Shown here piece by piece: positions 20,748 through 41,879 of a DNA stretch of 43,447 nt. The stretch spans positions 1 through 43,447 of the forward strand of contig QNFE01000012.1 in the NCBI GenBank assembly GCA_003645455.1. Direction: 5' to 3'. Both the position numbers and the translations under genes were made by a program. Position 1 is the first letter of the stretch; every line of letters starts with the position of its first letter. A model generated the notes under the pieces. It saw nothing but the letters and a program-made list of their open reading frames with translations, was not told where the DNA came from and made no database searches. This stretch comes from Gammaproteobacteria bacterium (GTDB lineage: Bacteria > Pseudomonadota > Gammaproteobacteria > QNFE01).

Positions 20748-21929
20748 TTACGAACTCCCTAAAATAAGACAACAATTATTGCCACCAAAACCAAAAGAAT
20801 TACTCAAAGTTGTGTTGATTGCCGCCGGAGTATTTTTTAAGATAATATTTGCTGATAATTCTTTGTCAATTTTTGTCGTATTCATTGTGCCAAAAGCCAT
20901 ATTATTTTGAATTGATAACATACAAATAATTAACTCTACGATGCCAGAGGCTGCTAAGGTATGCCCGCTCCCGCCTTTGGTAGAGCTTGCCATAGTGTCA
21001 TTAGAAAAAATATTTTTTATTGCCAAATCTTCTGTTTTATCATTGATAGCAGTGGCTGTGCCGTGCAAATTTATATAATCAACATCACAGGCGGACAAAC
21101 CTGCGTTATCAAGAGCAGAGTTAATAGCAAGTTTTGCCCCCAGGGCATCAGGATGTGGCGTTGACATATGAAAACCATCAACACTTTCGCCAAAACCTTT
21201 GATTTTTATTATCTCTTTATTTTTATCATTGTCATCACATTTTTCTAAGATTAAAAATGCTGCCGCCTCGCCAAGCGATGTGCCACCACGATTCTCATCC
21301 CACGGTGCACATTTTTGTGCGGACAATAATCCCAAAGAATGAAAACCATAAATTGTTGTCAAACACAAACTATCACAAACCCCGACAATTGCCACATCAG
21401 ATAAGCCAGCTTGAATATACTCCATCGCCGAGACCACCGCTTTGGCAGAGGAGGAACAGGCGGTTGATATCAGCGACATATGGGAGTTGATATTCAAATA
21501 AGACGAGACAAATTTTGCCAAAGAAAAAAATTGATGAGTGTTTTGGTAATTATCATTTTTGCTGTTATTTTGATAGGCTTGCTCGGTAGTTGTGATGCCA
21601 GAGGTGCTGGTGGCAAGAAATAGCGGAATATTATCGGAGCCGTATTTTTGTTTAATCCCCTCTACTTTTTGTTTAAAATTATCGGTATTGAGACAAAGTT
21701 GCGTCAGGCGATTATTGCGACAATCAGATTTTTTATAATCATCATCAATTTGATAACTTTTTAATTCTTTGACCTCGCCCAAATAGGTTTCAAAATCTAC
21801 CTGTGAATAGTTTTGTGGTTTAAGTCCGCTTTTAAATTCCAGCAAAGATTTCAAAGTCGCATCAATACCGCAGCCTAAGGCACTTACCAAAGTTGCAGAT
21901 GATATTTTAATTTCAGGTTTCATTATCAT
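20748..21929 (-). CDS. Beta-ketoacyl-ACP synthase (FabF/ApeO-like)
   Basis: The product is a 393-residue condensing enzyme that extends an acyl chain on ACP by decarboxylative Claisen condensation. The triad is intact: Cys158 in STACSSSA, His289 in NLHGTATA, and His323 in KGGSGHTLAASG, with Lys318 nearby. The last block, NSFGFGGNN, is typical. I chose the ATG at 21929, which shares one base with the Fic stop (TGATG); a TTG one codon earlier and an ATG two codons later are alternatives. With the chain-length-factor-like protein and the dehydratase it forms a mini polyene/fatty-acid cluster, not the housekeeping fab operon. Confidence 0.88.
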   Translation of the reverse strand: MIMKPEIKISSATLVSALGCGIDATLKSLLEFKSGLKPQNYSQVDFETYLGEVKELKSYQIDDDYKKSDCRNNRLTQLCLNTDNFKQKVEGIKQKYGSDNIPLFLATSTSGITTTEQAYQNNSKNDNYQNTHQFFSLAKFVSSYLNINSHMSLISTACSSSAKAVVSAMEYIQAGLSDVAIVGVCDSLCLTTIYGFHSLGLLSAQKCAPWDENRGGTSLGEAAAFLILEKCDDNDKNKEIIKIKGFGESVDGFHMSTPHPDALGAKLAINSALDNAGLSACDVDYINLHGTATAINDKTEDLAIKNIFSNDTMASSTKGGSGHTLAASGIVELIICMLSIQNNMAFGTMNTTKIDKELSANIILKNTPAAINTTLSNSFGFGGNNCCLILGSS

Positions 21930-22996
21930 CAAGTTTGAAAATAAGTTTTAACAGCAAAAGCAAATTGTCCGACAAATATATCTTTGATAACACTAATATT
22001 ATTTTGTTCATAAAACAATAACATAGCTTTTTTGTAATCAAGACTATCAACAGTGCGATACGATAAAGGGCATATTTTTTGGCTGATTAAAATTGCATTA
22101 GATACGATACGGGCAGTCCTTTTATTGCCATCGCTAAATGGTTGAATATATGAGATAAGAACCAAAGCTATCAAAGCGGCAGCAAAAGTATTTTTTTGTT
22201 CTTTGATAATATTACACATTGTATTAAGTGTCCCTTTAATTTGAAACTCATTGTCAAGAGGTTTAAAATTTGTTCCTTGAATTGCTACTAATCTTTGGCG
22301 AATATTCCTATCAATATTAAGGTTTTTTGTCAAAAGCATATGAATATTTTCAATTTTTGCAACAGAAATATCCTGCAAATAATCTGGGTTATCAACAATA
22401 AAATCCAAAGCACTTTTGTGGTTCAAAAGCATCGTTGCCTCATTATGAGTTTTACCTTTGGCAGTAATTTGCTCTTTTATTAAATTTTCAGTTTCTAATA
22501 ATGAATAGGTATTGCCCTCTATCTGTGATGACTTCCATGACAAATCTATCGCTAATCTTTCTTGCTCTTGGTTAAACTCCCTCTGGCTTAATTTTTGAGT
22601 ATTGTTTTGATGTTTTTTTTGTAGTTTTTGTAATTTTTTTTGTTCAGCTTGGGTAAATATTTCAACACCCATAAGATTACCCAACAAAGAAAAATTAAAA
22701 CCTTTGATAATCTTTCTGTCGTCTATTTCTTGTTTATAATACTTCTCTATATCAACTCCCTCAAACAATTTGTAATGATTAGATAGCTGGTATTTGGTGG
22801 CTCTGCCGGCACCATTTGCCACAATAAATTTATTTTCTATCGCTTCTTTTAAAGCTCGTTTAACAGTCGCAAGCGATTTTGTGCCAAGTTTTTCAACAAT
22901 AACAGATGAGGATATATTAGGGTTCAGTTTTAAAATTTCAATTATTTGGCTGTCAATTGGCATAATCGGCTCATCAGTTGTTAAAATACGGCTCAT
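21929..22996 (-). CDS. Fic-domain protein with N-terminal winged helix and altered catalytic motif
   Basis: The product has up to 355 residues. Residues 12-75 look like a winged-helix DNA-binding domain (ISSSVIVEKLG...TVKRALKEAI). A class II inhibitory motif, SSQIEGN, is at 156-162 and the Fic core follows. The catalytic loop reads QPFSDGNKR (285-293); the canonical loop is HPFxxGNxR, so the AMP-transferring His is replaced by Gln (CAA). Loss or change of AMPylation is expected. The ATG at 22996 directly abuts a TATAAT, so transcription may start inside the frame. The ATG at 22963 (residue 12) is then the better start. It shares one base with the ketosynthase gene downstream. Confidence 0.85.
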   Translation of the reverse strand: MSRILTTDEPIMPIDSQIIEILKLNPNISSSVIVEKLGTKSLATVKRALKEAIENKFIVANGAGRATKYQLSNHYKLFEGVDIEKYYKQEIDDRKIIKGFNFSLLGNLMGVEIFTQAEQKKLQKLQKKHQNNTQKLSQREFNQEQERLAIDLSWKSSQIEGNTYSLLETENLIKEQITAKGKTHNEATMLLNHKSALDFIVDNPDYLQDISVAKIENIHMLLTKNLNIDRNIRQRLVAIQGTNFKPLDNEFQIKGTLNTMCNIIKEQKNTFAAALIALVLISYIQPFSDGNKRTARIVSNAILISQKICPLSYRTVDSLDYKKAMLLFYEQNNISVIKDIFVGQFAFAVKTYFQT

Positions 22997-23043
22997 ATTA
23001 TAGCAACATTGTTTTATATTTGTTTATTTTTTGAGCCGTATTT
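22984..23043. promoter_or_regulatory. Inverted-repeat operator around the fic promoter
   Basis: AAATACGGCTCA (22984-22995) and its exact reverse complement TGAGCCGTATTT (23032-23043) lie 36 bases apart, flanking the fic promoter region. A minus-strand TATAAT (23002-22997) sits just inside the left arm. Two operator half-sites around a promoter suit repression by looping or by a large dimer, perhaps by the Fic protein's own winged helix. A long-loop terminator for mtaB is a weaker alternative. Confidence 0.5.
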
Positions 23044-25967: not shown

Positions 25968-28900
25968 ATGTCACAGTTATTAAATTCTAATCATTCATCT
26001 TCATACAGGGTCCTACGTCGCAACGGAAAAGAAACAGATTTCAATGTCGATAAAATCAAAAATGCACTTACCAAGGCATTTGTTGCTACCGAGGGCGATG
26101 ATGGATCGCGCGCCCAACACATTCACGATATTGTCGCAAAACTTACCAACCAAGTATGGGATGCCCTCACTCGCTCACGCATTGAAGGTGCTATTTTTCA
26201 CATTGAAGATATTCAAGATCAAGTAGAATTATCTCTTATGCGAGAGGGGCATCAAAAAGTAGCCCGTGCTTATGTTTTATACCGTGAGAAAAGAAACCAA
26301 GCCCGTCCTGACAGCAACCAAAAAACAAAAATAAAATCCACTGGTTTATCTACCATCACTGATGATAATAAAAAAATAATCCTTGATTTTGCCGAGTTAA
26401 AAAACATATGTAAAGATGCCTGTCATCATCTTGCCGGAGTGTCGGCAGATATTATCTATCAAGAAATTAAAGAAAACTTGTTTGATGGTATGCAACAGAG
26501 TAAAATTATAGATGTTGCCATTATGGTTGTAAAAACTATGATTGATAAAAACCCCAATTATGGTTTTGTTGCCAGCCGTTTATTATTAAACAAAGCTCGC
26601 ACCGGGGCAACTGGTTTTTTATATGGCAACAATCAACAAAGAAAATCAAACTTAGAATGGCAGGATTTTTATAAAAAATATTTTAAAGACTATATCAACA
26701 AAGGTTGTGAACTAAACCTTTTAGATAGCAGATTATGTAGCGAATATGATCTGAATGTTTTATCAGATGCGATTGATGGCAACCGTGATTTAAATTTTAA
26801 TTTTTTAGGATTACAAACACTATATGATAGGTATTTAATTCATCAAGGAGAGACGAGGATTGAATTACCGCAGGCATTTTTTATGCGAGTAGCGATGGGG
26901 CTTGCTATTAACGAGATAAACCGCGAGCAAAAAACAATTGAGTTCTATAACTTATTATCAAATTTTGATTTTATGTGTTCCACCCCGACCCTTTTTAATT
27001 CAGGAACATTACGACCACAATTATCCTCCTGTTATTTAACTACTATCCCCGATGATTTACAAGGAATATTTGAGGGCATAACAGACGATGCAATGCTCTC
27101 CAAATTTGCAGGAGGGCTTGGCAATGATTGGACGCAGGTGCGAGCGATGGGTTCACATATCAAAGGCACCAATGGCAAATCACAAGGAGTTGTGCCATTT
27201 TTAAAAGTAGCCAACGATACCGCTGTGGCAGTAAATCAATGTTTTGCAACCGATACTAATGTTTTTATCCCAGATGGCATCTGTCAAATAAGCAAGATTA
27301 AAAAAGGAGATTTAGTGCTTGGAAATAGTGGTAATTATCGTGAGGTTACAGATACTTTTACTTACAACCAAAAAGATAAAATGTTACAAATCAATATCGA
27401 GCATTCTATCAAACCATTAAAAATAACAGATGGTCATCCTTTGTATGCCCTGCAAAATGTGCCATTAAAACAAGCAAATCACCGCACTTATGATTGGTTA
27501 AAAAAAGGCAAAATCAAAACACAATGGACTGATGCAAAAAACCTTAAAAAAGGAGACTTTGTAGCTCAGGTTATCCCCCAAGAAGTTGTGCCAGTTGCTG
27601 ACTTTGACTGTGATGATGCTCGTATGTATGGAATTATGTTAGGCGATGGACATCTATCAAAAAATGGCTCTGAGTGGGGAATATCATTTAATCCTGCCAA
27701 AGATAAACATATTAAATTTGTTGAAAGCTATCTAAAAACTCGTAATATTCATTTTTATAAACATCAAAGAGATGCAAATTATTGTCAATTGAAGTGGGCG
27801 GCAGGTTGTGGAGTTGTGCGGTGTGCGACAACTGGCAGATTTGTTGAGGCAGGTGAAGACACCATGCCATTTTCTTATGATGATATTTATAATAAAAATC
27901 ATCAAAAAATTATTGCCAGAAAATTTAACCATTTACCACCACCACAAACATTATCTCTTATTCATGGTTTGTTAGAGACGGATGGCGGAATATCAAGAGG
28001 TTGCGAGATATATTTTACGAACACCTCTGAATCTCTGGCTGAGGGTTTGCGATATCAACTTTTGCGTCTTGGTGTTCCAAGTGCAGGACAATATAGAGAG
28101 CATAAAAATGATCACACCGCTACAAGAGTAGATGGCACAAAAATAGAATTTAAAGGCATAACAAAGGCTTATGATATTCGCATTCCAGCTACGGCAGAAA
28201 TTGCCCCTCTTGTAGATTGCAAAGTTATAAAAAAACAAAATTGGTTAAAAATTAACAATCATATTTTTTCACGCATTCGTGATATAAAATCTATCCGGCC
28301 TAATTCTTTTGTTTGTGATTTAAAAGTAGAAGGTGATGAATCTTATATGACAACATCAGTTTTAGCCCATAATGGCGGAAAAAGAAAAGGCGCTATGTGT
28401 GCTTATTTAGAAACTTGGCATTTAGATATTGAAGACTTTTTAGAGCTTCGCAAAAATACCGGCGATGAGAGACGGCGAACTCATGATATGAATACCGCCA
28501 ACTGGATTCCAGATTTATTTATGAAACGGGTCATAGAAGAGAAAAACTGGACTTTGTTCTCCCCTGAGGAAGTGCCAGAATTACACGACTTATACGGCGA
28601 TGACTTTGATAAAAAATATGCAGAATATGAAGACAAGGCAAATCAAGGCAAAATAAAACTTTTTAAAACTATGCCTGCGGTGGATTTATGGCGAAAAATG
28701 CTCGGTATGCTGTTTGAAACCGGACATCCGTGGATTGCATTTAAAGACCCTTGTAATATTCGCTCACCTCAACAACATTCAGGAGTTGTCCACTCATCAA
28801 ATCTTTGCACCGAGATAACGCTCAATACGAACAAAGATGAAATTGCTGTTTGTAATCTAGGCTCAATCAATCTACCGGCTCATATTGATGAAAATGGATT

Positions 28901-29900
28901 AAACACCAAAAAACTTAAAAAAACAATCAAAACTGCAATGCGAATGTTAGATAATGTCATAGATTATAATTATTATTCAGTAGCCAAAGCACGCAATTCA
29001 AATCTCAAACATCGCCCGGTCGGCATAGGTTTAATGGGATTCAATGATGCACTTTATAAACAAAAAATCCCCTATTGCTCCCAAGAGGCGATTGATTTTG
29101 CTGATACTTCAATGGAGCAAATAAGTTATAATGCGATTGAGACATCTGCTGATTTATCAGTTGAGAGAGGCTCATATGATAGTTTTGCAGGGTCCACTTG
29201 GAGTCGTGGAGAAGTGCCAATTGATAGCTTAAAAGATTTAAAAAAATATCGTGGTGATTATTTGCAAACAGATACCGGCTCTAAATTAGACTGGGATAAA
29301 CTGCGCCAAAAAGTTAAAAACGGGATGCGAAACTCCAACACCATGGCAATCGCGCCGACTGCCACTATCTCTAATATTTGTGGAGTAAGCCAATCTATTG
29401 AACCAACTTATCAAAATCTCTATGTAAAATCAAATCTCTCTGGTGAATTTACCGTTATCAATCCATATCTTGCCAAAACTCTGCAAGAGAATAATTTGTG
29501 GGATGATTTAATGATAAATGATTTAAAATTTTATGACGGTAGCATCCAAGACATAAAACGAGTGCCAGATAACATAAAAAAATTATTTCCTTGTGCTTTT
29601 GAGGTAGATTCAAGATATTTAATAGAGGCAGCCGCTCGTCGCCAAAAATGGATCGACCAAGCCATAAGTTTAAATTTATATATGGAAGAAGCATCAGGCA
29701 AACTATTAGACAATTTATATAAACTTGCCTGGGTGCGAGGTTTAAAAACAACCTATTATCTAAGATCAAAAGGCGCCACAGGCGTCGAAAAAAGCACGGA
29801 GGCAACCGCCATGAATACCGAATCCACGACAACCAACAATGAAACAAGAGAGCCTGCCGCCTGTTCCATCTTAGATCCCGAATGCGAGGCTTGCCAATAA
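25968..29900 (+). CDS. nrdA: Class I ribonucleotide reductase alpha subunit with intein
   Basis: The precursor has 1310 residues: 932 of reductase plus a 378-residue intein at 425-802. NrdA reduces ribonucleoside diphosphates to deoxyribonucleotides with the radical from NrdB. The order is an ATP-cone (residues 10-105, YRVLRRNGKETDF), the all-alpha region, and the barrel with Cys in LSSCYL and later in NLCTEITL and AVCNLGSINL. The C-terminal redox tail is ACSILDPECEACQ. The fragment STPTLFNSG is the substrate-phosphate region. The intein splits AVNQ/GGKRKGA. Two NrdR boxes lie upstream. The nrdB partner is 10 kb away, beyond two R-M operons, and a second diverged copy of this gene's 3' end lies at 35555. 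Confidence 0.96.
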   Translation: MSQLLNSNHSSSYRVLRRNGKETDFNVDKIKNALTKAFVATEGDDGSRAQHIHDIVAKLTNQVWDALTRSRIEGAIFHIEDIQDQVELSLMREGHQKVARAYVLYREKRNQARPDSNQKTKIKSTGLSTITDDNKKIILDFAELKNICKDACHHLAGVSADIIYQEIKENLFDGMQQSKIIDVAIMVVKTMIDKNPNYGFVASRLLLNKARTGATGFLYGNNQQRKSNLEWQDFYKKYFKDYINKGCELNLLDSRLCSEYDLNVLSDAIDGNRDLNFNFLGLQTLYDRYLIHQGETRIELPQAFFMRVAMGLAINEINREQKTIEFYNLLSNFDFMCSTPTLFNSGTLRPQLSSCYLTTIPDDLQGIFEGITDDAMLSKFAGGLGNDWTQVRAMGSHIKGTNGKSQGVVPFLKVANDTAVAVNQCFATDTNVFIPDGICQISKIKKGDLVLGNSGNYREVTDTFTYNQKDKMLQINIEHSIKPLKITDGHPLYALQNVPLKQANHRTYDWLKKGKIKTQWTDAKNLKKGDFVAQVIPQEVVPVADFDCDDARMYGIMLGDGHLSKNGSEWGISFNPAKDKHIKFVESYLKTRNIHFYKHQRDANYCQLKWAAGCGVVRCATTGRFVEAGEDTMPFSYDDIYNKNHQKIIARKFNHLPPPQTLSLIHGLLETDGGISRGCEIYFTNTSESLAEGLRYQLLRLGVPSAGQYREHKNDHTATRVDGTKIEFKGITKAYDIRIPATAEIAPLVDCKVIKKQNWLKINNHIFSRIRDIKSIRPNSFVCDLKVEGDESYMTTSVLAHNGGKRKGAMCAYLETWHLDIEDFLELRKNTGDERRRTHDMNTANWIPDLFMKRVIEEKNWTLFSPEEVPELHDLYGDDFDKKYAEYEDKANQGKIKLFKTMPAVDLWRKMLGMLFETGHPWIAFKDPCNIRSPQQHSGVVHSSNLCTEITLNTNKDEIAVCNLGSINLPAHIDENGLNTKKLKKTIKTAMRMLDNVIDYNYYSVAKARNSNLKHRPVGIGLMGFNDALYKQKIPYCSQEAIDFADTSMEQISYNAIETSADLSVERGSYDSFAGSTWSRGEVPIDSLKDLKKYRGDYLQTDTGSKLDWDKLRQKVKNGMRNSNTMAIAPTATISNICGVSQSIEPTYQNLYVKSNLSGEFTVINPYLAKTLQENNLWDDLMINDLKFYDGSIQDIKRVPDNIKKLFPCAFEVDSRYLIEAAARRQKWIDQAISLNLYMEEASGKLLDNLYKLAWVRGLKTTYYLRSKGATGVEKSTEATAMNTESTTTNNETREPAACSILDPECEACQ
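27240..28373 (+). other. Intein with LAGLIDADG homing endonuclease inside NrdA
   Basis: Block A starts at Cys425 (CFATDTNVFIPDG), and block B is LKITDGHPLY with the TxxH. The two endonuclease motifs are YGIMLGDGHL (block C) and IHGLLETDGGI (block E). Block F is FVCDLKVEGDESY, and block G ends SVLAHN at Asn802. Removing residues 425-802 restores the conserved AVNQGGKRKGA exactly, so the borders are firm. The odd point is the +1 residue: Gly803, not Cys, Ser or Thr. Standard branch formation would be impossible, so an alternative route or defective splicing must be considered. Confidence 0.9.
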
Positions 29901-29945
29901 TTATAAAACAAAATGCCAAAAATAAAAGACATTCCAAAAGTTGAT
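29499..29945 (+). repeat. Long direct repeat, copy 1 (nrdA 3' end plus start of radC fusion)
   Basis: These 447 bases cover the last 133 codons of nrdA, the 12-base gap, and the first 11 codons of the following gene. They recur at 35555-35992 with roughly 88-90% identity by eye and one 9-base in-frame difference near the nrdA C-terminus. Most differences are at third codon positions. Identity stops abruptly at TTGAT on the right and at TGGGA on the left. Confidence 0.9.
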
Positions 29946-31691
29946 AGACCGCGTGAGAGATTGCTTGCAAAAGGAGCAAATGCTCTATCAAAAACAGATT
30001 TGTTAGCAATTATGCTAGGCAGTGGTATAAAAGGCATAAATGTTCAATCTTTGGCTAAAAAAATTATTACCAAATTTAATAAGAGTTTTTTAGATATAAG
30101 TATTGATGATTTGTTAAAAATTAAAGGAATAGGACAAGCCAAAGCCTTGCAAATTTATAGTGCCATAGCCCTTATCAAACGTTTTTATCAAGAACAAAAC
30201 AGCACCGATTTAATTGTCAAAAATATCCAAGATGTTTTAACCTTGACATTTGATATTAGAGACAAAAAAAAGGAGCATTTGATTTGTTTGCACCTTGATA
30301 GTCGTAATGCTTTAATTAAAAAAGAAACTTTGAGTATTGGTGTATTGGATAAAAGCCTTGTTCATCCAAGAGAGATTTTTGCAAGTAGTTTAAAATGTAA
30401 AAGTGCCAGCATAATTCTTATTCACAACCACCCAAGTGGCAACCCTGCTCCCAGTGAACAAGACCAAAAAATAGCAAAAAATATTAACAAAGCCGCTCAA
30501 ATTATGGGTATTGCTCTATTAGATTTTGTCATAATAGCCAAAGACGGACACACCAGTTTTTATCAAAAAATACAACCCAATAAAAATTTAGATTATGTTG
30601 CTGATGGTTTTCAAATGGGTTTGTTTGATTTGTCAGAAATTGAAAAACCTATTTATAAAAACAATAAGCATTATTTTCAACAAAAAAAATCAAAGTTAGG
30701 GCATTTTCAATTACAAAATCGCAGATATTTGGGCAATAAATACAAATTACTTGGTTTTATTGAAGATATTGTCAATCAAAAATGCTCTGGAATAAGATCA
30801 TTTTGTGATATTTTTGCTGGCACTGGTGTGGTTGGAGAACGTTTTAACAACAGAAACATTAGCATTATTTCTAACGACTTTTTGTCTGCAAACCATATCT
30901 GTTTGCAAACTTTTTTAAATACAACAAAACAAATAAACATAAAAGAAAAAATAAACTATTTAAATAATGTAAAATATGACGAAAACTATTTCTCGAAAAA
31001 TTTTGGTAATCGTTATTTTTCTATGAAAAATGCTAAAAAAATCGGTTCAATCAGAGAAGAGATTGACAATATAGCTGGCAACAATCAAGAAAAAAATATT
31101 TTAATTTGTTCTTTATTGTATGCTACTGATAAAGTTGCTAATACAGTAGGACATTACGATGCTTTTCGTAAAAAAATAGATTCAATCAAACCAATTCATT
31201 TACTTGTTCCAAATATTGATTATTCACACAACACCGACAATCAAATTCACCAAGAAGATGCCAATAAGTTAATAAAAAAAATATCTTGTGATGTGTTGTA
31301 TATTGACCCACCATATAATTCACGTCAATATTCAGATGCATATCATTTATTGGAAAATCTGACAGAGTGGAAAAAACCAGAAGTGGTTGGTATTGGTAAA
31401 AAAATGGACAGGAAACACATAAAAAGCGACTATTGTATAACAAAAGCAACTTTAGCATTTTCTAACTTAATCAATGATGCAAATTGTAAACATATTTTAT
31501 TTTCATACAATAATACAAAAGATTCAAAAGATGGTCGTTCAAATGCTAGAATTAGTGATGAAGATATTTTGAATATTTTAGATAACAAAGGAAAGGTGGA
31601 TATTTTCGAAAAAGATTATAAGACATTTACTACTGGTAAAAGTAATGGCGATAATAATGCAGAAAGAGTTTTTTATTGTGAGGTTGAATGA
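29913..31691 (+). CDS. RadC (JAMM) - adenine DNA methyltransferase fusion
   Basis: The product has 592 residues in two parts. Residues 1-225 are a full RadC/DUF2466 protein: MPKIKDIPKVDRPRERLL, a helix-hairpin-helix (LLKIKGIGQAKAL), and the JAMM metal motif HNHPSGNPAPSEQD (171-184). Residues 270-590 are a D12-type N6-adenine methyltransferase with RRYLGNKYKLL, FAGTG (301-305) and DPPY (465-468). Between them lies FQMGLFDLS (233-241), resembling a beta-clamp binding peptide. It overlaps the next gene by four bases and opens a four-gene operon with an AlwI-family endonuclease. It should methylate one strand of that enzyme's site. The use of RadC here is unknown. Confidence 0.88.
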   Translation: MPKIKDIPKVDRPRERLLAKGANALSKTDLLAIMLGSGIKGINVQSLAKKIITKFNKSFLDISIDDLLKIKGIGQAKALQIYSAIALIKRFYQEQNSTDLIVKNIQDVLTLTFDIRDKKKEHLICLHLDSRNALIKKETLSIGVLDKSLVHPREIFASSLKCKSASIILIHNHPSGNPAPSEQDQKIAKNINKAAQIMGIALLDFVIIAKDGHTSFYQKIQPNKNLDYVADGFQMGLFDLSEIEKPIYKNNKHYFQQKKSKLGHFQLQNRRYLGNKYKLLGFIEDIVNQKCSGIRSFCDIFAGTGVVGERFNNRNISIISNDFLSANHICLQTFLNTTKQINIKEKINYLNNVKYDENYFSKNFGNRYFSMKNAKKIGSIREEIDNIAGNNQEKNILICSLLYATDKVANTVGHYDAFRKKIDSIKPIHLLVPNIDYSHNTDNQIHQEDANKLIKKISCDVLYIDPPYNSRQYSDAYHLLENLTEWKKPEVVGIGKKMDRKHIKSDYCITKATLAFSNLINDANCKHILFSYNNTKDSKDGRSNARISDEDILNILDNKGKVDIFEKDYKTFTTGKSNGDNNAERVFYCEVE

Positions 31692-39830: not shown

Positions 39831-41879
39831 ATGATAAACTGGGATGACCCATTAGCACCAATAACTCATGCGGATTCGGATGATAATCTGTTAATGGATG
39901 AGGCAAATGAGATACAAGAGGATAAAAAACAAGTTGATGAATCTGCGGAATTATTATCCATCGAGCCGATTAACCCTGACCACAAAAGAGTCGTAAACGG
40001 CCAGACGGATATAAATCAACTTGCCCCTTTTAAATATCCGTGGGCATGGGATTACTTTCTTAATGCTAATAAAAACCACTGGACGCCACTTGATATAAAT
40101 ATGACGCAAGATATTGCCGATTATAATCAAAAACTCACTATTGAAGAAAAACATGTTTATGATAATGTGTTGGCATATTTAACCACCTCAGATATTTTGG
40201 CGATGCGGAATATCGGCTTGGCAGTGATGGAGAAAATGACAGCGCCTGAATTACAAATTTATCAAGCTCGACAAGTATACGAAGAGGCTTTGCATTGTTA
40301 TATTGACGGCACCCAAGTTTTAAGTGAAAATGGTTTTATTGATTTTAAGGATATCAAAAAAAGGACAAAAATAGCCCAATATAATGAAGACGGTAGTATT
40401 GAATTTGTTAATCATCTGGGTATAACTGCTGATGATTATACAGGAGATATGATAAGTTTTAAATCCGCAGTGTATAACAGTTGTGTGACTCCTAATCATC
40501 GTTGTGTAAGTATCAATGAAAGGGACAACAACAAATTAGAGATAATAGTTGCAGAGAAATTATCGCCCAGTAATAGAAAATTTCCAGTTGCAGGTTGTGT
40601 GCAAGATACAAAAAAACAAAAATTCTCTGATATAGATAAATTAAAAATTGCCTATCAAGCAGATGGCACAATTTGTAATGATGGTAATAAGTTAAAAGAT
40701 GGCACAATTATGTATCGTTGGCATTTTAAAAAACAAAGAAAAATTGATAGATTATTAAATATTCTACAAGATTTAAAACTAAAAAATAAAATAAGTGATA
40801 ATGAATATATTTATGCTTGGGTACCTGCAAACTACAATCTTGGCAAAGATTTTTCTTTTGTTGATTTAACTAATATTTCATATAACTATGCCAGAAATTT
40901 TATCAATGAACTTACTCTATGGGACGGCTCACAAAGCTCCCAAATGTTAAGATATTCATCAACTAATGAGTCGTGCATAAATATAACAAGTGCCGTAGCA
41001 ACTCTTGCAAATTATAGAACAGGAGAGCACAAAACTAAAACCAAAACAGACACGGACTATTGGACTTTAAACTTTGTTGACAAAAATTATACATCTGGCA
41101 GAAGCATTAAAAAAACATATCAAAAATACCGGGGCAAGGTTTATAGTGTTGGTGTGCCATCAACTATGATAATCACCAAATATCAGGGCAAAATTTGCAT
41201 AAGTGGCAATACCTGGACATATCAACATTGTATTGAAAGTTTAGGATTAGATCAAGCGGAGGTTTATAACCGTTATCGTGTTGTGCCACAAATAAACAAA
41301 AAAATTCAAATTACTAACCGCAGATTAGCCTCAATTTTGCGAGCAGATATTGACTTAAAAGATAGAAAAGAATTGGAAAATTTTGTTATGGCATATATCT
41401 TTTTTGCAGGGATTTTTGAGGGAGTTTGGTTTTATAATGGTTTTTCACCCATTTTTGCTTTGCAAAGACGTGGGATTATGAAAGGCACTGCCGAGCAATT
41501 TCAATACATTATGCGAGATGAGGTAATGCACTGCTCGTTTGGGATTAAAGTCGTCCGACAAATCATCAAAGAGGAGAATATAAAATTAGATCAAAAATTA
41601 TTAGACGAGATGTTTGCCGAGAGTCTCGAGGCTGAGTCCGCTTATGCAAATTATTTATTGCCAGAGCCTATGATAGGATATTCTGCTCAAAATCATATTG
41701 ATCAGTTTAAATATATTTGCAATCGCCGTGCTCGTCAGTTAGAAATTAAAGAGCCATATGATGATGCCATAAATGCCCTGCCGTGGTTAGATGAGCAAGC
41801 GAATTTACGCAAAGAGAAAAACTTTTTTGAAACTCGGGTTACCGAATATCAAACAGGTGGCGCATTAAAATGGGAATAA
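39831..41879 (+). CDS. nrdB: Class I ribonucleotide reductase beta subunit with intein
   Basis: The precursor has 682 residues: 377 of NrdB plus a 305-residue intein at 156-460. NrdB holds the metal centre and the tyrosyl radical that starts NrdA catalysis. Ligand motifs are EEALH (Glu152, His155) and the second RDEVMHCSFG pair. The radical Tyr is Y464 in TWTYQH, four residues after His155 once the intein is removed. The C-terminus GGALKWE is the usual NrdA-binding tail. AAGGAGT stands before the ATG. The gene once probably followed nrdA; two R-M operons now separate them, so its expression may depend on read-through from the R-M genes or on a promoter I cannot identify. Confidence 0.96.
   Translation: MINWDDPLAPITHADSDDNLLMDEANEIQEDKKQVDESAELLSIEPINPDHKRVVNGQTDINQLAPFKYPWAWDYFLNANKNHWTPLDINMTQDIADYNQKLTIEEKHVYDNVLAYLTTSDILAMRNIGLAVMEKMTAPELQIYQARQVYEEALHCYIDGTQVLSENGFIDFKDIKKRTKIAQYNEDGSIEFVNHLGITADDYTGDMISFKSAVYNSCVTPNHRCVSINERDNNKLEIIVAEKLSPSNRKFPVAGCVQDTKKQKFSDIDKLKIAYQADGTICNDGNKLKDGTIMYRWHFKKQRKIDRLLNILQDLKLKNKISDNEYIYAWVPANYNLGKDFSFVDLTNISYNYARNFINELTLWDGSQSSQMLRYSSTNESCINITSAVATLANYRTGEHKTKTKTDTDYWTLNFVDKNYTSGRSIKKTYQKYRGKVYSVGVPSTMIITKYQGKICISGNTWTYQHCIESLGLDQAEVYNRYRVVPQINKKIQITNRRLASILRADIDLKDRKELENFVMAYIFFAGIFEGVWFYNGFSPIFALQRRGIMKGTAEQFQYIMRDEVMHCSFGIKVVRQIIKEENIKLDQKLLDEMFAESLEAESAYANYLLPEPMIGYSAQNHIDQFKYICNRRARQLEIKEPYDDAINALPWLDEQANLRKEKNFFETRVTEYQTGGALKWE
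40296..41210 (+). other. Intein inside NrdB
   Basis: It starts at Cys156 (CYIDGTQVLSENG) and has block B NSCVTPNHRCVS. Endonuclease-like blocks follow (KIAYQADGTICNDG and LTLWDGSQSSQ), then block F KVYSVGVPSTMII, and it ends ICISGN at Asn460. The +1 residue is Thr461, a normal nucleophile. The penultimate residue is Gly instead of the usual His. Removal restores YEEALHTWTYQH, so the borders are exact. It sits between the metal-ligand His and the radical Tyr; unspliced protein would be inactive. Confidence 0.9.

What the first reader, a model, noticed from the sequence alone, without database searches (positions are those of the whole stretch)
21929..22996. Fic protein with the catalytic His replaced by Gln, coupled to a ketosynthase gene
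The loop reads QPFSDGNKR rather than HPFxxGNxR, while the inhibitory SxxxEG motif and a winged helix remain. The protein may have lost AMPylation and become a pure regulator, or may use another reaction, as known for Fic proteins with altered motifs. Its one-base TGATG overlap with the ketosynthase suggests control of the small polyketide/fatty-acid cluster.
Basis: partly seen in the sequence, partly recalled or inferred. Interest (0 to 1): 0.55.

Follow-up and report, generated by a model that had tools for sequence, protein, structure and literature searches.

The report
Self-regulated Fic protein with Gln motif
This gene encodes a DNA-binding Fic protein whose usual catalytic histidine is a glutamine; the glutamine is shared by its whole family, and a conserved set of binding-site repeats in front of the gene suggests that the protein switches off its own gene, while its neighbouring fatty-acid genes look like a chance association.

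Summary
In detail: the minus-strand Fic ORF reads QPFSDGNKR (Gln codon CAA, 22142-22144), keeps SSQIEGN and begins with a winged helix. It is neither an error nor a private change: Gln is present in 102 of 102 aligned homologues, with Asp, Asn, both Arg and the inhibitory Glu also invariant. A Gln-motif clade ("D2") was described in 2015 without a function. New here: in front of the short homologues lies a conserved operator, GCTCA-22-GCTCA-19-TGAGC-22-TGAGC. Three or more phased half-sites occur in 72 of 77 loci and in 2 of 449 other gene starts, both sharing the fic intergenic region. In the window three sites flank a sigma-70-like promoter (22964-23041), placing the probable start at ATG 22963, not 22996. 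The perfect site pair occurs once in the 2.06 Mb genome. Best reading: a mobile, solitary, self-repressing winged-helix/Fic protein, probably not a standard AMPylase, whose pocket may still bind a nucleotide-like ligand. The ketosynthase link is not conserved (no other fic locus, none of four ketosynthase loci from class relatives), so control of that cluster is at most local read-through. DNA binding and chemistry remain unmeasured.

The parts
21929..22963 (-). Gln-motif winged-helix/Fic protein, probable true extent (344 aa, start Met12 of the reported ORF); the reported ORF runs to 22996
   Evidence: homologues start at Met12; commonest homologue lengths 346 and 344 aa; residues 1-8 low confidence in the model
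22784..22963 (-). N-terminal winged-helix DNA-binding domain (residues 12-71 of the 355-aa ORF)
   Evidence: AlphaFold2 secondary structure; PF13412 21.7 bits against cut-off 21.9; homologues L042, L078, L031, L005 over the PF03965 cut-off
22511..22531 (-). SSQIEGN, N-terminal inhibitory-helix motif (Glu160)
   Evidence: Glu160 in 101 of 101 rows that reach it; 1 truncated row lacks it
22118..22144 (-). Fic loop QPFSDGNKR, Gln285 codon CAA at 22142-22144
   Evidence: Gln in 102 of 102 rows; Asp289, Asn291, Arg293, Arg296 in 102 of 102
23032..23041 (-). operator half-site 1, ATACGGCTCA
22986..22995 (-). operator half-site 3, TGAGCCGTAT, inverted repeat of site 1 (36 bp between them); site 2, expected near 23010-23014, is lost (reads AAACA)
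22964..22973 (-). operator half-site 4, TGAGCCGATT, 22 bp after site 3 and directly before ATG 22963
   Evidence: sites 3 and 4 are the only perfect TGAGCY-N16-TGAGCY in the genome
22997..23026 (-). sigma-70-like promoter, TAAACA-18-TATAAT, lying between half-sites 1 and 3
   Evidence: consensus scan only; 36 such sites in the 4 kb scanned against a mean of 20.6 in shuffles, so weak on its own
20748..21929 (-). ketosynthase gene (NCBIfam PRK09185); ATG 21929 overlaps the fic stop by one base; not a conserved partner

Best explanation
A solitary, horizontally spreading, self-regulated DNA-binding Fic protein of the His-to-Gln Fic clade. (1) Its N-terminal winged helix binds an array of half-sites (22-19-22 bp register; sites 1, 3 and 4 remain in the window) that brackets its own promoter, and represses its own transcription. 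(2) The Fic domain keeps the residues that by analogy with FICD hold a nucleotide's phosphates and metal (Asp289, Asn291, Arg293, Arg296) and the self-inhibitory Glu160, but lacks the histidine general base, so ordinary AMPylation should be absent or very slow. (3) The pocket most likely binds a nucleotide-like ligand; competition between the ligand and the Glu160-Arg296 contact would reposition the inhibitory helix and alter DNA binding, so that the level of the protein tracks that ligand. (4) The fic-ketosynthase overlap in this genome is a by-product of insertion; the ketosynthase genes may be read from the fic promoter. Shown here: domain anatomy, invariance of Gln and pocket, operator conservation and register. 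Inferred: DNA binding and repression (strong), loss of AMPylation (moderate), ligand sensing (weak to moderate), incidental ketosynthase link (strong).
For: Gln285 in 102 of 102, pocket residues in 102 of 102, Glu160 in 101 of 101 rows; the peptide patterns that found the 80 genome-contig loci did not include the Fic loop, so this is not circular. Operator: 75 of 77 loci have at least 3 half-sites against 11 of 3850 shuffles; 72 of 77 phased against 2 of 449 other gene starts, both divergent neighbours sharing the fic intergenic region (coordinates). Between sites 3 and 4 the loci carry TAnnTTTG in 40 of 70 and TAnnTT in 56 of 70, which I recall as the Bacteroidota -7 element; the window has a sigma-70-like promoter between sites 1 and 3 instead, so sites overlap the promoter in both hosts. 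One perfect site pair in the own genome, at fic. In 12 homologue genomes 22 of 41 perfect pairs lie within 260 bp upstream of fic, at least one per genome; reversed-pattern control: 1 match. L084 (47% identical, different recognition helix) has four ATGTCGC words, forming two pairs again 22 bp apart. Mobility: LeuS is 57-59% identical to two Gammaproteobacteria and 38-40% in the main segment to two Bacteroidota, whereas the nearest fic homologues are Bacteroidota; 7 of 369 class genomes (own included) have a match at E <= 1e-40, and of these only one besides the own has a short-type gene. No recurrent neighbour family in more than 5 loci among 445 neighbour genes.
Against: No binding, repression or enzyme measurement exists. 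The window has lost half-site 2, and its promoter call is only a consensus match in AT-rich DNA. A repressor whose only site is its own promoter explains dosage control, not benefit: some other activity must exist, which favours the rival of a still-active enzyme. The general repeat test did not single out the short group (6 of 78 at p <= 0.01); only the specific half-site tests do. In the 20 longer relatives the second motif Gly is Val, Ile, Met or Cys, so phosphate binding may be altered there. In the quick tree the window sequence branches at the base of the short group, so its donor is not identified.
Confidence: 0.66

Rival explanations
1. A still-active enzyme or toxin-like effector (AMPylation with a weak base, another transfer, or removal of a modification) whose dose is capped by self-repression, as in the Fic-HTH protein CccR.
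For: Every other catalytic-pocket residue and the inhibitory Glu are invariant, as expected of a site under selection for chemistry. CccR has the same logic with His: H192 needed for toxicity, 10-bp inverted repeats in its promoter, 3.3-fold higher promoter activity in the deletion strain, and independent regulatory and toxic activities (PMC9755527; passages, section 10 part 1). Khater and Mohanty argue that the Gln clade might not be dead (PMC4454073 section 6).
Against: The general base is absent in all members; no conserved antitoxin-like neighbour.
Confidence: 0.38
2. A dedicated regulator of the adjacent ketosynthase/dehydratase genes.
For: One-base TGATG overlap and common strand; read-through from the fic promoter is likely if no other promoter intervenes.
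Against: No ketosynthase within the fetched flanks of any other fic locus; no fic in the four class-relative ketosynthase loci examined; the perfect site pair is absent elsewhere in the genome.
Confidence: 0.12
3. A sequencing or assembly error, or a decaying Fic pseudogene, produced the Gln.
For: None found.
Against: Gln in 102 of 102 homologues; full-length open frame with no internal stops; model pLDDT 94.
Confidence: 0.01

Closest known systems
Gln-motif Fic/Doc clade D2 (Khater and Mohanty 2015, PMC4454073)
   Same: His replaced by Gln; the published consensus Qx[F/Y]x[D/E][G/V]NKR fits the window; published as function unknown (section 6 read)
   Different: Described there as 45 sequences, usually single-domain; here a winged helix is fused and a conserved promoter operator is present. 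No D2 sequences were compared directly
CccR of Yersinia pseudotuberculosis (PMC9755527)
   Same: Fic domain plus DNA-binding domain; represses its own promoter through widely spaced 10-bp inverted repeats near the -35 and -10 boxes (passages, section 10 part 1)
   Different: Has catalytic His192 and AMPylates FtsZ; HTH is C-terminal; two half-sites with a 26-bp spacer rather than a four-half-site 22-19-22 array
CbFic2 of Coxiella burnetii (PMC10628234)
   Same: Fic enzyme coupled to an HTH; DNA binding changes its state (abstract and outline, section 15 part 1); its structure 8cil aligns at Z 21.7, rmsd 3.3, 242 residues
   Different: HTH is C-terminal; catalytically active (AMPylation and deAMPylation)
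Human FICD/HYPE
   Same: Closest solved Fic core: Z 26.5, rmsd 2.2, 237 residues (6zmd); inhibitory motif N-terminal to the core aligns
   Different: Catalytic His present; no winged helix; 17% identity

Membership tests
Fic/Doc (Fido) fold | Fic domain profile and fold | tested here: met
   PF02661 41.4 bits over cut-off 24; Z 26 to FICD
Canonical Fic AMPylase | catalytic His in HxFx(D/E)GN(G/K)R | tested here: not met
   Gln in the window and in 102 of 102 aligned rows
Canonical Fic AMPylase | AMP transfer to a protein | not testable with these tools
   needs an assay
Class II (N-terminally self-inhibited) Fic | (S/T)xxxE(G/N) motif N-terminal to the Fic core | tested here: met
   SSQIEGN; Glu160 101 of 101. 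Class name and motif definition recalled
Gln clade D2 of Khater and Mohanty | Qx[F/Y]x[D/E][G/V]NKR | tested here: met
   window QPFSDGNKR; definition in PMC4454073
Gln clade D2 of Khater and Mohanty | place inside that clade on a tree with its 45 sequences | not tested
   the 45 sequences were not at hand
Gln clade D2 of Khater and Mohanty | usually single-domain (a stated tendency, not strictly defining) | tested here: not met
   N-terminal winged helix
CccR-like self-repressing Fic | inverted repeats overlapping the own promoter | tested here: met
   72 of 77 short-type loci phased; window sites; promoter by consensus only
CccR-like self-repressing Fic | DNA binding, and derepression in a deletion | not testable with these tools
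   needs EMSA and a reporter
CccR-like self-repressing Fic | C-terminal HTH and catalytic His | tested here: not met
   winged helix is N-terminal, Gln in the motif
Two-gene Fic toxin-antitoxin module | conserved adjacent antitoxin gene | tested here: not met
   no neighbour family in more than 5 loci among 445 neighbour genes of at least 80 aa; smaller genes were not examined
Dedicated ketosynthase-cluster regulator | conserved association with the cluster | tested here: not met

The most novel reading that the evidence does not exclude
The Gln-motif Fic clade is a widespread class of one-protein nucleotide sensors: the former AMPylation site has become a ligand pocket (or performs a new Gln-dependent reaction) wired to a winged helix that reads a self-owned 22-19-22 operator, and the gene with its operator moves between phyla as a self-contained regulatory unit whose DNA specificity diversifies while the spacing of site pairs near 22 bp is kept.
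Probability: 0.3. Interest if true: 0.75.

Novelty: new variant of a known kind. Interest (0 to 1): 0.48.

Why it matters
The Gln-motif Fic clade has been in print since 2015 without a function. A conserved, cross-phylum operator in front of these genes gives a concrete first function (self-repression) and a reporter with which the unknown ligand or reaction of the altered Fic site can be sought. It also shows how a pocket that lost its catalytic base could be kept by selection.

Tried and rejected
Sequencing error or private mutation: rejected, Gln is invariant. Designed coupling with the ketosynthase cluster: rejected as a conserved feature. Two-gene toxin-antitoxin module: no conserved partner among neighbour genes of at least 80 aa. 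Defence island: PADLOC tallies over 123 neighbour proteins show scattered hits (largest family 3 of 123); Pfam tallies likewise (largest 3 of 123); no enrichment claim is made, as no background set was scanned.

General repeat statistic: at p <= 0.01 it flags 6 of 78 short loci, 11 of 19 long loci, 4 of 29 His-type Fic loci and 2 of 67 other genes. It supports repeats in front of the long relatives but did not find the short-group operator, which was seen by eye and then tested with the fixed words GCTCA/TGAGC. So the word was chosen on the same loci on which it was counted; the shuffles, the 449 other gene starts and the 22-19-22 register are the controls.

Host naming by 16S failed: no 16S found in the window's genome nor in 6 of the other 7 searched; LeuS identity was used instead. 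The plasmid copy L184 (Bacteroides finegoldii) is matched only from inside the winged helix on, and I saw no operator in the stretch read. Viral-contig hits were found with a pattern that includes the Gln motif and are not counted as evidence for it. The phage collection gave only 5 partial relatives.

Rows dropped: the best 80 of 301 relatives were kept by the tool and all 80 were used in the residue counts; L018 (split frame), L026, L043 and L068 (too little upstream DNA) were left out of the operator count, and L084 was treated apart. L018 and L086 were left out of the tree, and L001 there stands as the window row. Loci missing the strict register: L019, L031, L038, L062, L081.

Full report
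Observation. Pfam assigns Fic (41.4 bits). AlphaFold2 with a 58-row alignment gives pLDDT 94.1, with a winged helix over residues 14-71 and a helical Fic core. The core is closest to human FICD (Z 26.5, rmsd 2.2, 237 residues).

The Gln is a family hallmark. 102 proteins were aligned: the window, 80 loci from genome contigs (the best 80 of 301 relatives), and 21 more distant relatives from genomes of the same class or phylum. Position 285 is Gln in 102 of 102. Phe287, Asp289, Asn291, Arg293 and Arg296 are also invariant, Lys292 is found in 101, and Glu160 in 101 of the 101 rows that reach it. The peptide patterns that found the 80 loci did not touch the Fic loop. Of the 21 distant relatives, L084 is short (347 aa, QAFEDGNKR); the other 20 (443-495 aa, one 313-aa fragment) read Q[PAT]FxD[VIMC]NKR. 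As a control, 29 of 30 Fic loci found by Pfam profile in the same class have a His motif; for the thirtieth the script printed IPPFLDGNGR. Khater and Mohanty (2015, PMC4454073; section 6 read) described a clade D2 with Qx[F/Y]x[D/E][G/V]NKR, 45 sequences, no known function. A full-text search for 'fic domain', 'histidine' and 'replaced by glutamine' returned only that paper. Searches for a self-regulating or pseudo-enzyme Fic returned CccR and no account of the operator described below; the library lacks most subscription papers.

A conserved operator. Reading the DNA in front of the homologues showed GCTCA, GCTCA, TGAGC, TGAGC with starts 22, 19 and 22 bases apart. Of 77 short-type loci with enough upstream DNA (window included), 75 have at least three such words, against 11 of 3850 dinucleotide shuffles. 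With the register enforced, 72 of 77 qualify against 2 of 449 other gene starts in the same loci, and those two are divergent neighbours that share the fic intergenic region (coordinates). Over 70 loci aligned on the last site pair, TAnnTT stands before the last site in 56 of 70 and TAnnTTTG in 40 of 70, which I recall as the Bacteroidota -7 promoter element. So the last site abuts the probable promoter. Five loci miss the strict register (L019, L031, L038, L062, L081).

The window's operator. Half-sites stand at 23032-23041 (ATACGGCTCA), 22986-22995 (TGAGCCGTAT) and 22964-22973 (TGAGCCGATT); the second site of the array is lost (AAACA at 23010-23014). Distances 41 and 22 match the family register. 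A sigma-70-like TAAACA-18-TATAAT lies at 23026-22997, between sites 1 and 3 (a consensus match only). The longer start ATG 22996 directly follows the TATAAT, so transcription should begin inside it; Met12 (22963), where the homologues begin, is the probable start. In the own genome the pair TGAGCY-N16-TGAGCY occurs once without mismatch, here (ten further places have one mismatch, and the reversed control pattern gave one). In 12 genomes of homologues it occurs 41 times, 22 of them within 260 bp upstream of fic and at least one per genome. The other 19 were not assigned to genes; a family of near-identical copies sits in G753.

The same arrangement with other words. L084, 47% identical and with a different recognition helix, has four ATGTCGC words that form two pairs 22 bp apart. 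Repeated seven-base words with at least three copies were printed for 13 of 19 long loci, and the general test flags 11 of 19 at p <= 0.01 against 4 of 29 His-type Fic loci and 2 of 67 other genes. In L090 and L119 three copies lie 20-21 bp apart. The same general test did not single out the short group (6 of 78), so it is supportive only for the long one.

Mobility and context. LeuS of the window is 57-59% identical to two named Gammaproteobacteria (genomes of L038 and L051) and 38-40% in the main segment to two Bacteroidota, yet the closest fic genes are in Bacteroidota. Only 7 of 369 class genomes, the own included, have a match at E <= 1e-40, and of these only G047 has another short-type gene. 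In the quick tree near-identical fic genes sit in different families, for instance L042 (Marinilabiliaceae) and L048 (Cyclobacteriaceae), and the window copy branches at the base of the short group. Among 445 neighbour genes the commonest recurring family occurs in 5 loci. PADLOC and Pfam tallies over 123 neighbours show only scattered hits. Four full-length short-type relatives occur on IMG/VR contigs.

The ketosynthase link. The ketosynthase (PRK09185), a Ketoacyl-synt_2 protein and a small third gene follow fic with a one-base overlap at the first junction. In four class relatives the same ketosynthase and Ketoacyl-synt_2 pair occurs without fic within the 6.9-12 kb taken, and no other fic locus has a ketosynthase within the fetched flanks. 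I recall this gene set as aryl-polyene-like; no call names it so. The overlap is best read as an insertion that may place these genes under the fic promoter in this genome.

Mechanism. Shown: anatomy, invariance, operator and register. Strongly inferred: self-repression. The published Fic-HTH protein CccR does this through 10-bp inverted repeats 26 bp apart and keeps regulation separable from catalysis (PMC9755527, section 10 part 1). Moderately inferred: loss of ordinary AMPylation. Weakly inferred: ligand sensing through the Glu160-Arg296 contact; no distance was measured in the model, whose coordinates were not at hand. The main open point is that a repressor with itself as only target needs a further activity; a still-active enzyme kept at low dose is therefore a serious rival.

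Noticed in passing
window 25968-29900 (+): Ribonucleotide reductase large subunit ORF of 1310 aa carries an intein (Intein_splicing and LAGLIDADG_3 matches between the reductase domains).
   Followed up: no
window 39831-41879 (+): Ribonucleotide reductase small subunit ORF is 682 aa against a 383-position model; the best match covers residues 461-682 only, so about 300 extra residues without a Pfam match lie in or before it.
   Followed up: partly
window 29913-31691 (+): RadC and a D12-class N6-adenine DNA methyltransferase are fused in one ORF; downstream lie an AlwI-type restriction enzyme and a C5-methylase/Eco57I-type fusion.
   Followed up: no
L002 (G000:C28:16365-16961): The same genome has a second, short (230 aa) Fic protein with Gln at the His position, NQFFYDGNKR.
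   Followed up: no
L046, upstream of fic: Two copies of the operator array stand in tandem in front of fic; L034, L061 and L063 have an extra TGAGC pair further upstream.
   Followed up: no
G753 (genome of L078): Seven similar copies of a repeat with TGAGCY-N16-TGAGCY pairs away from fic; the one copy read is part of a longer run of similar words (L152).
   Followed up: no
L195-L198: Four IMG/VR contigs encode full-length short-type relatives at 52-55% identity.
   Followed up: no
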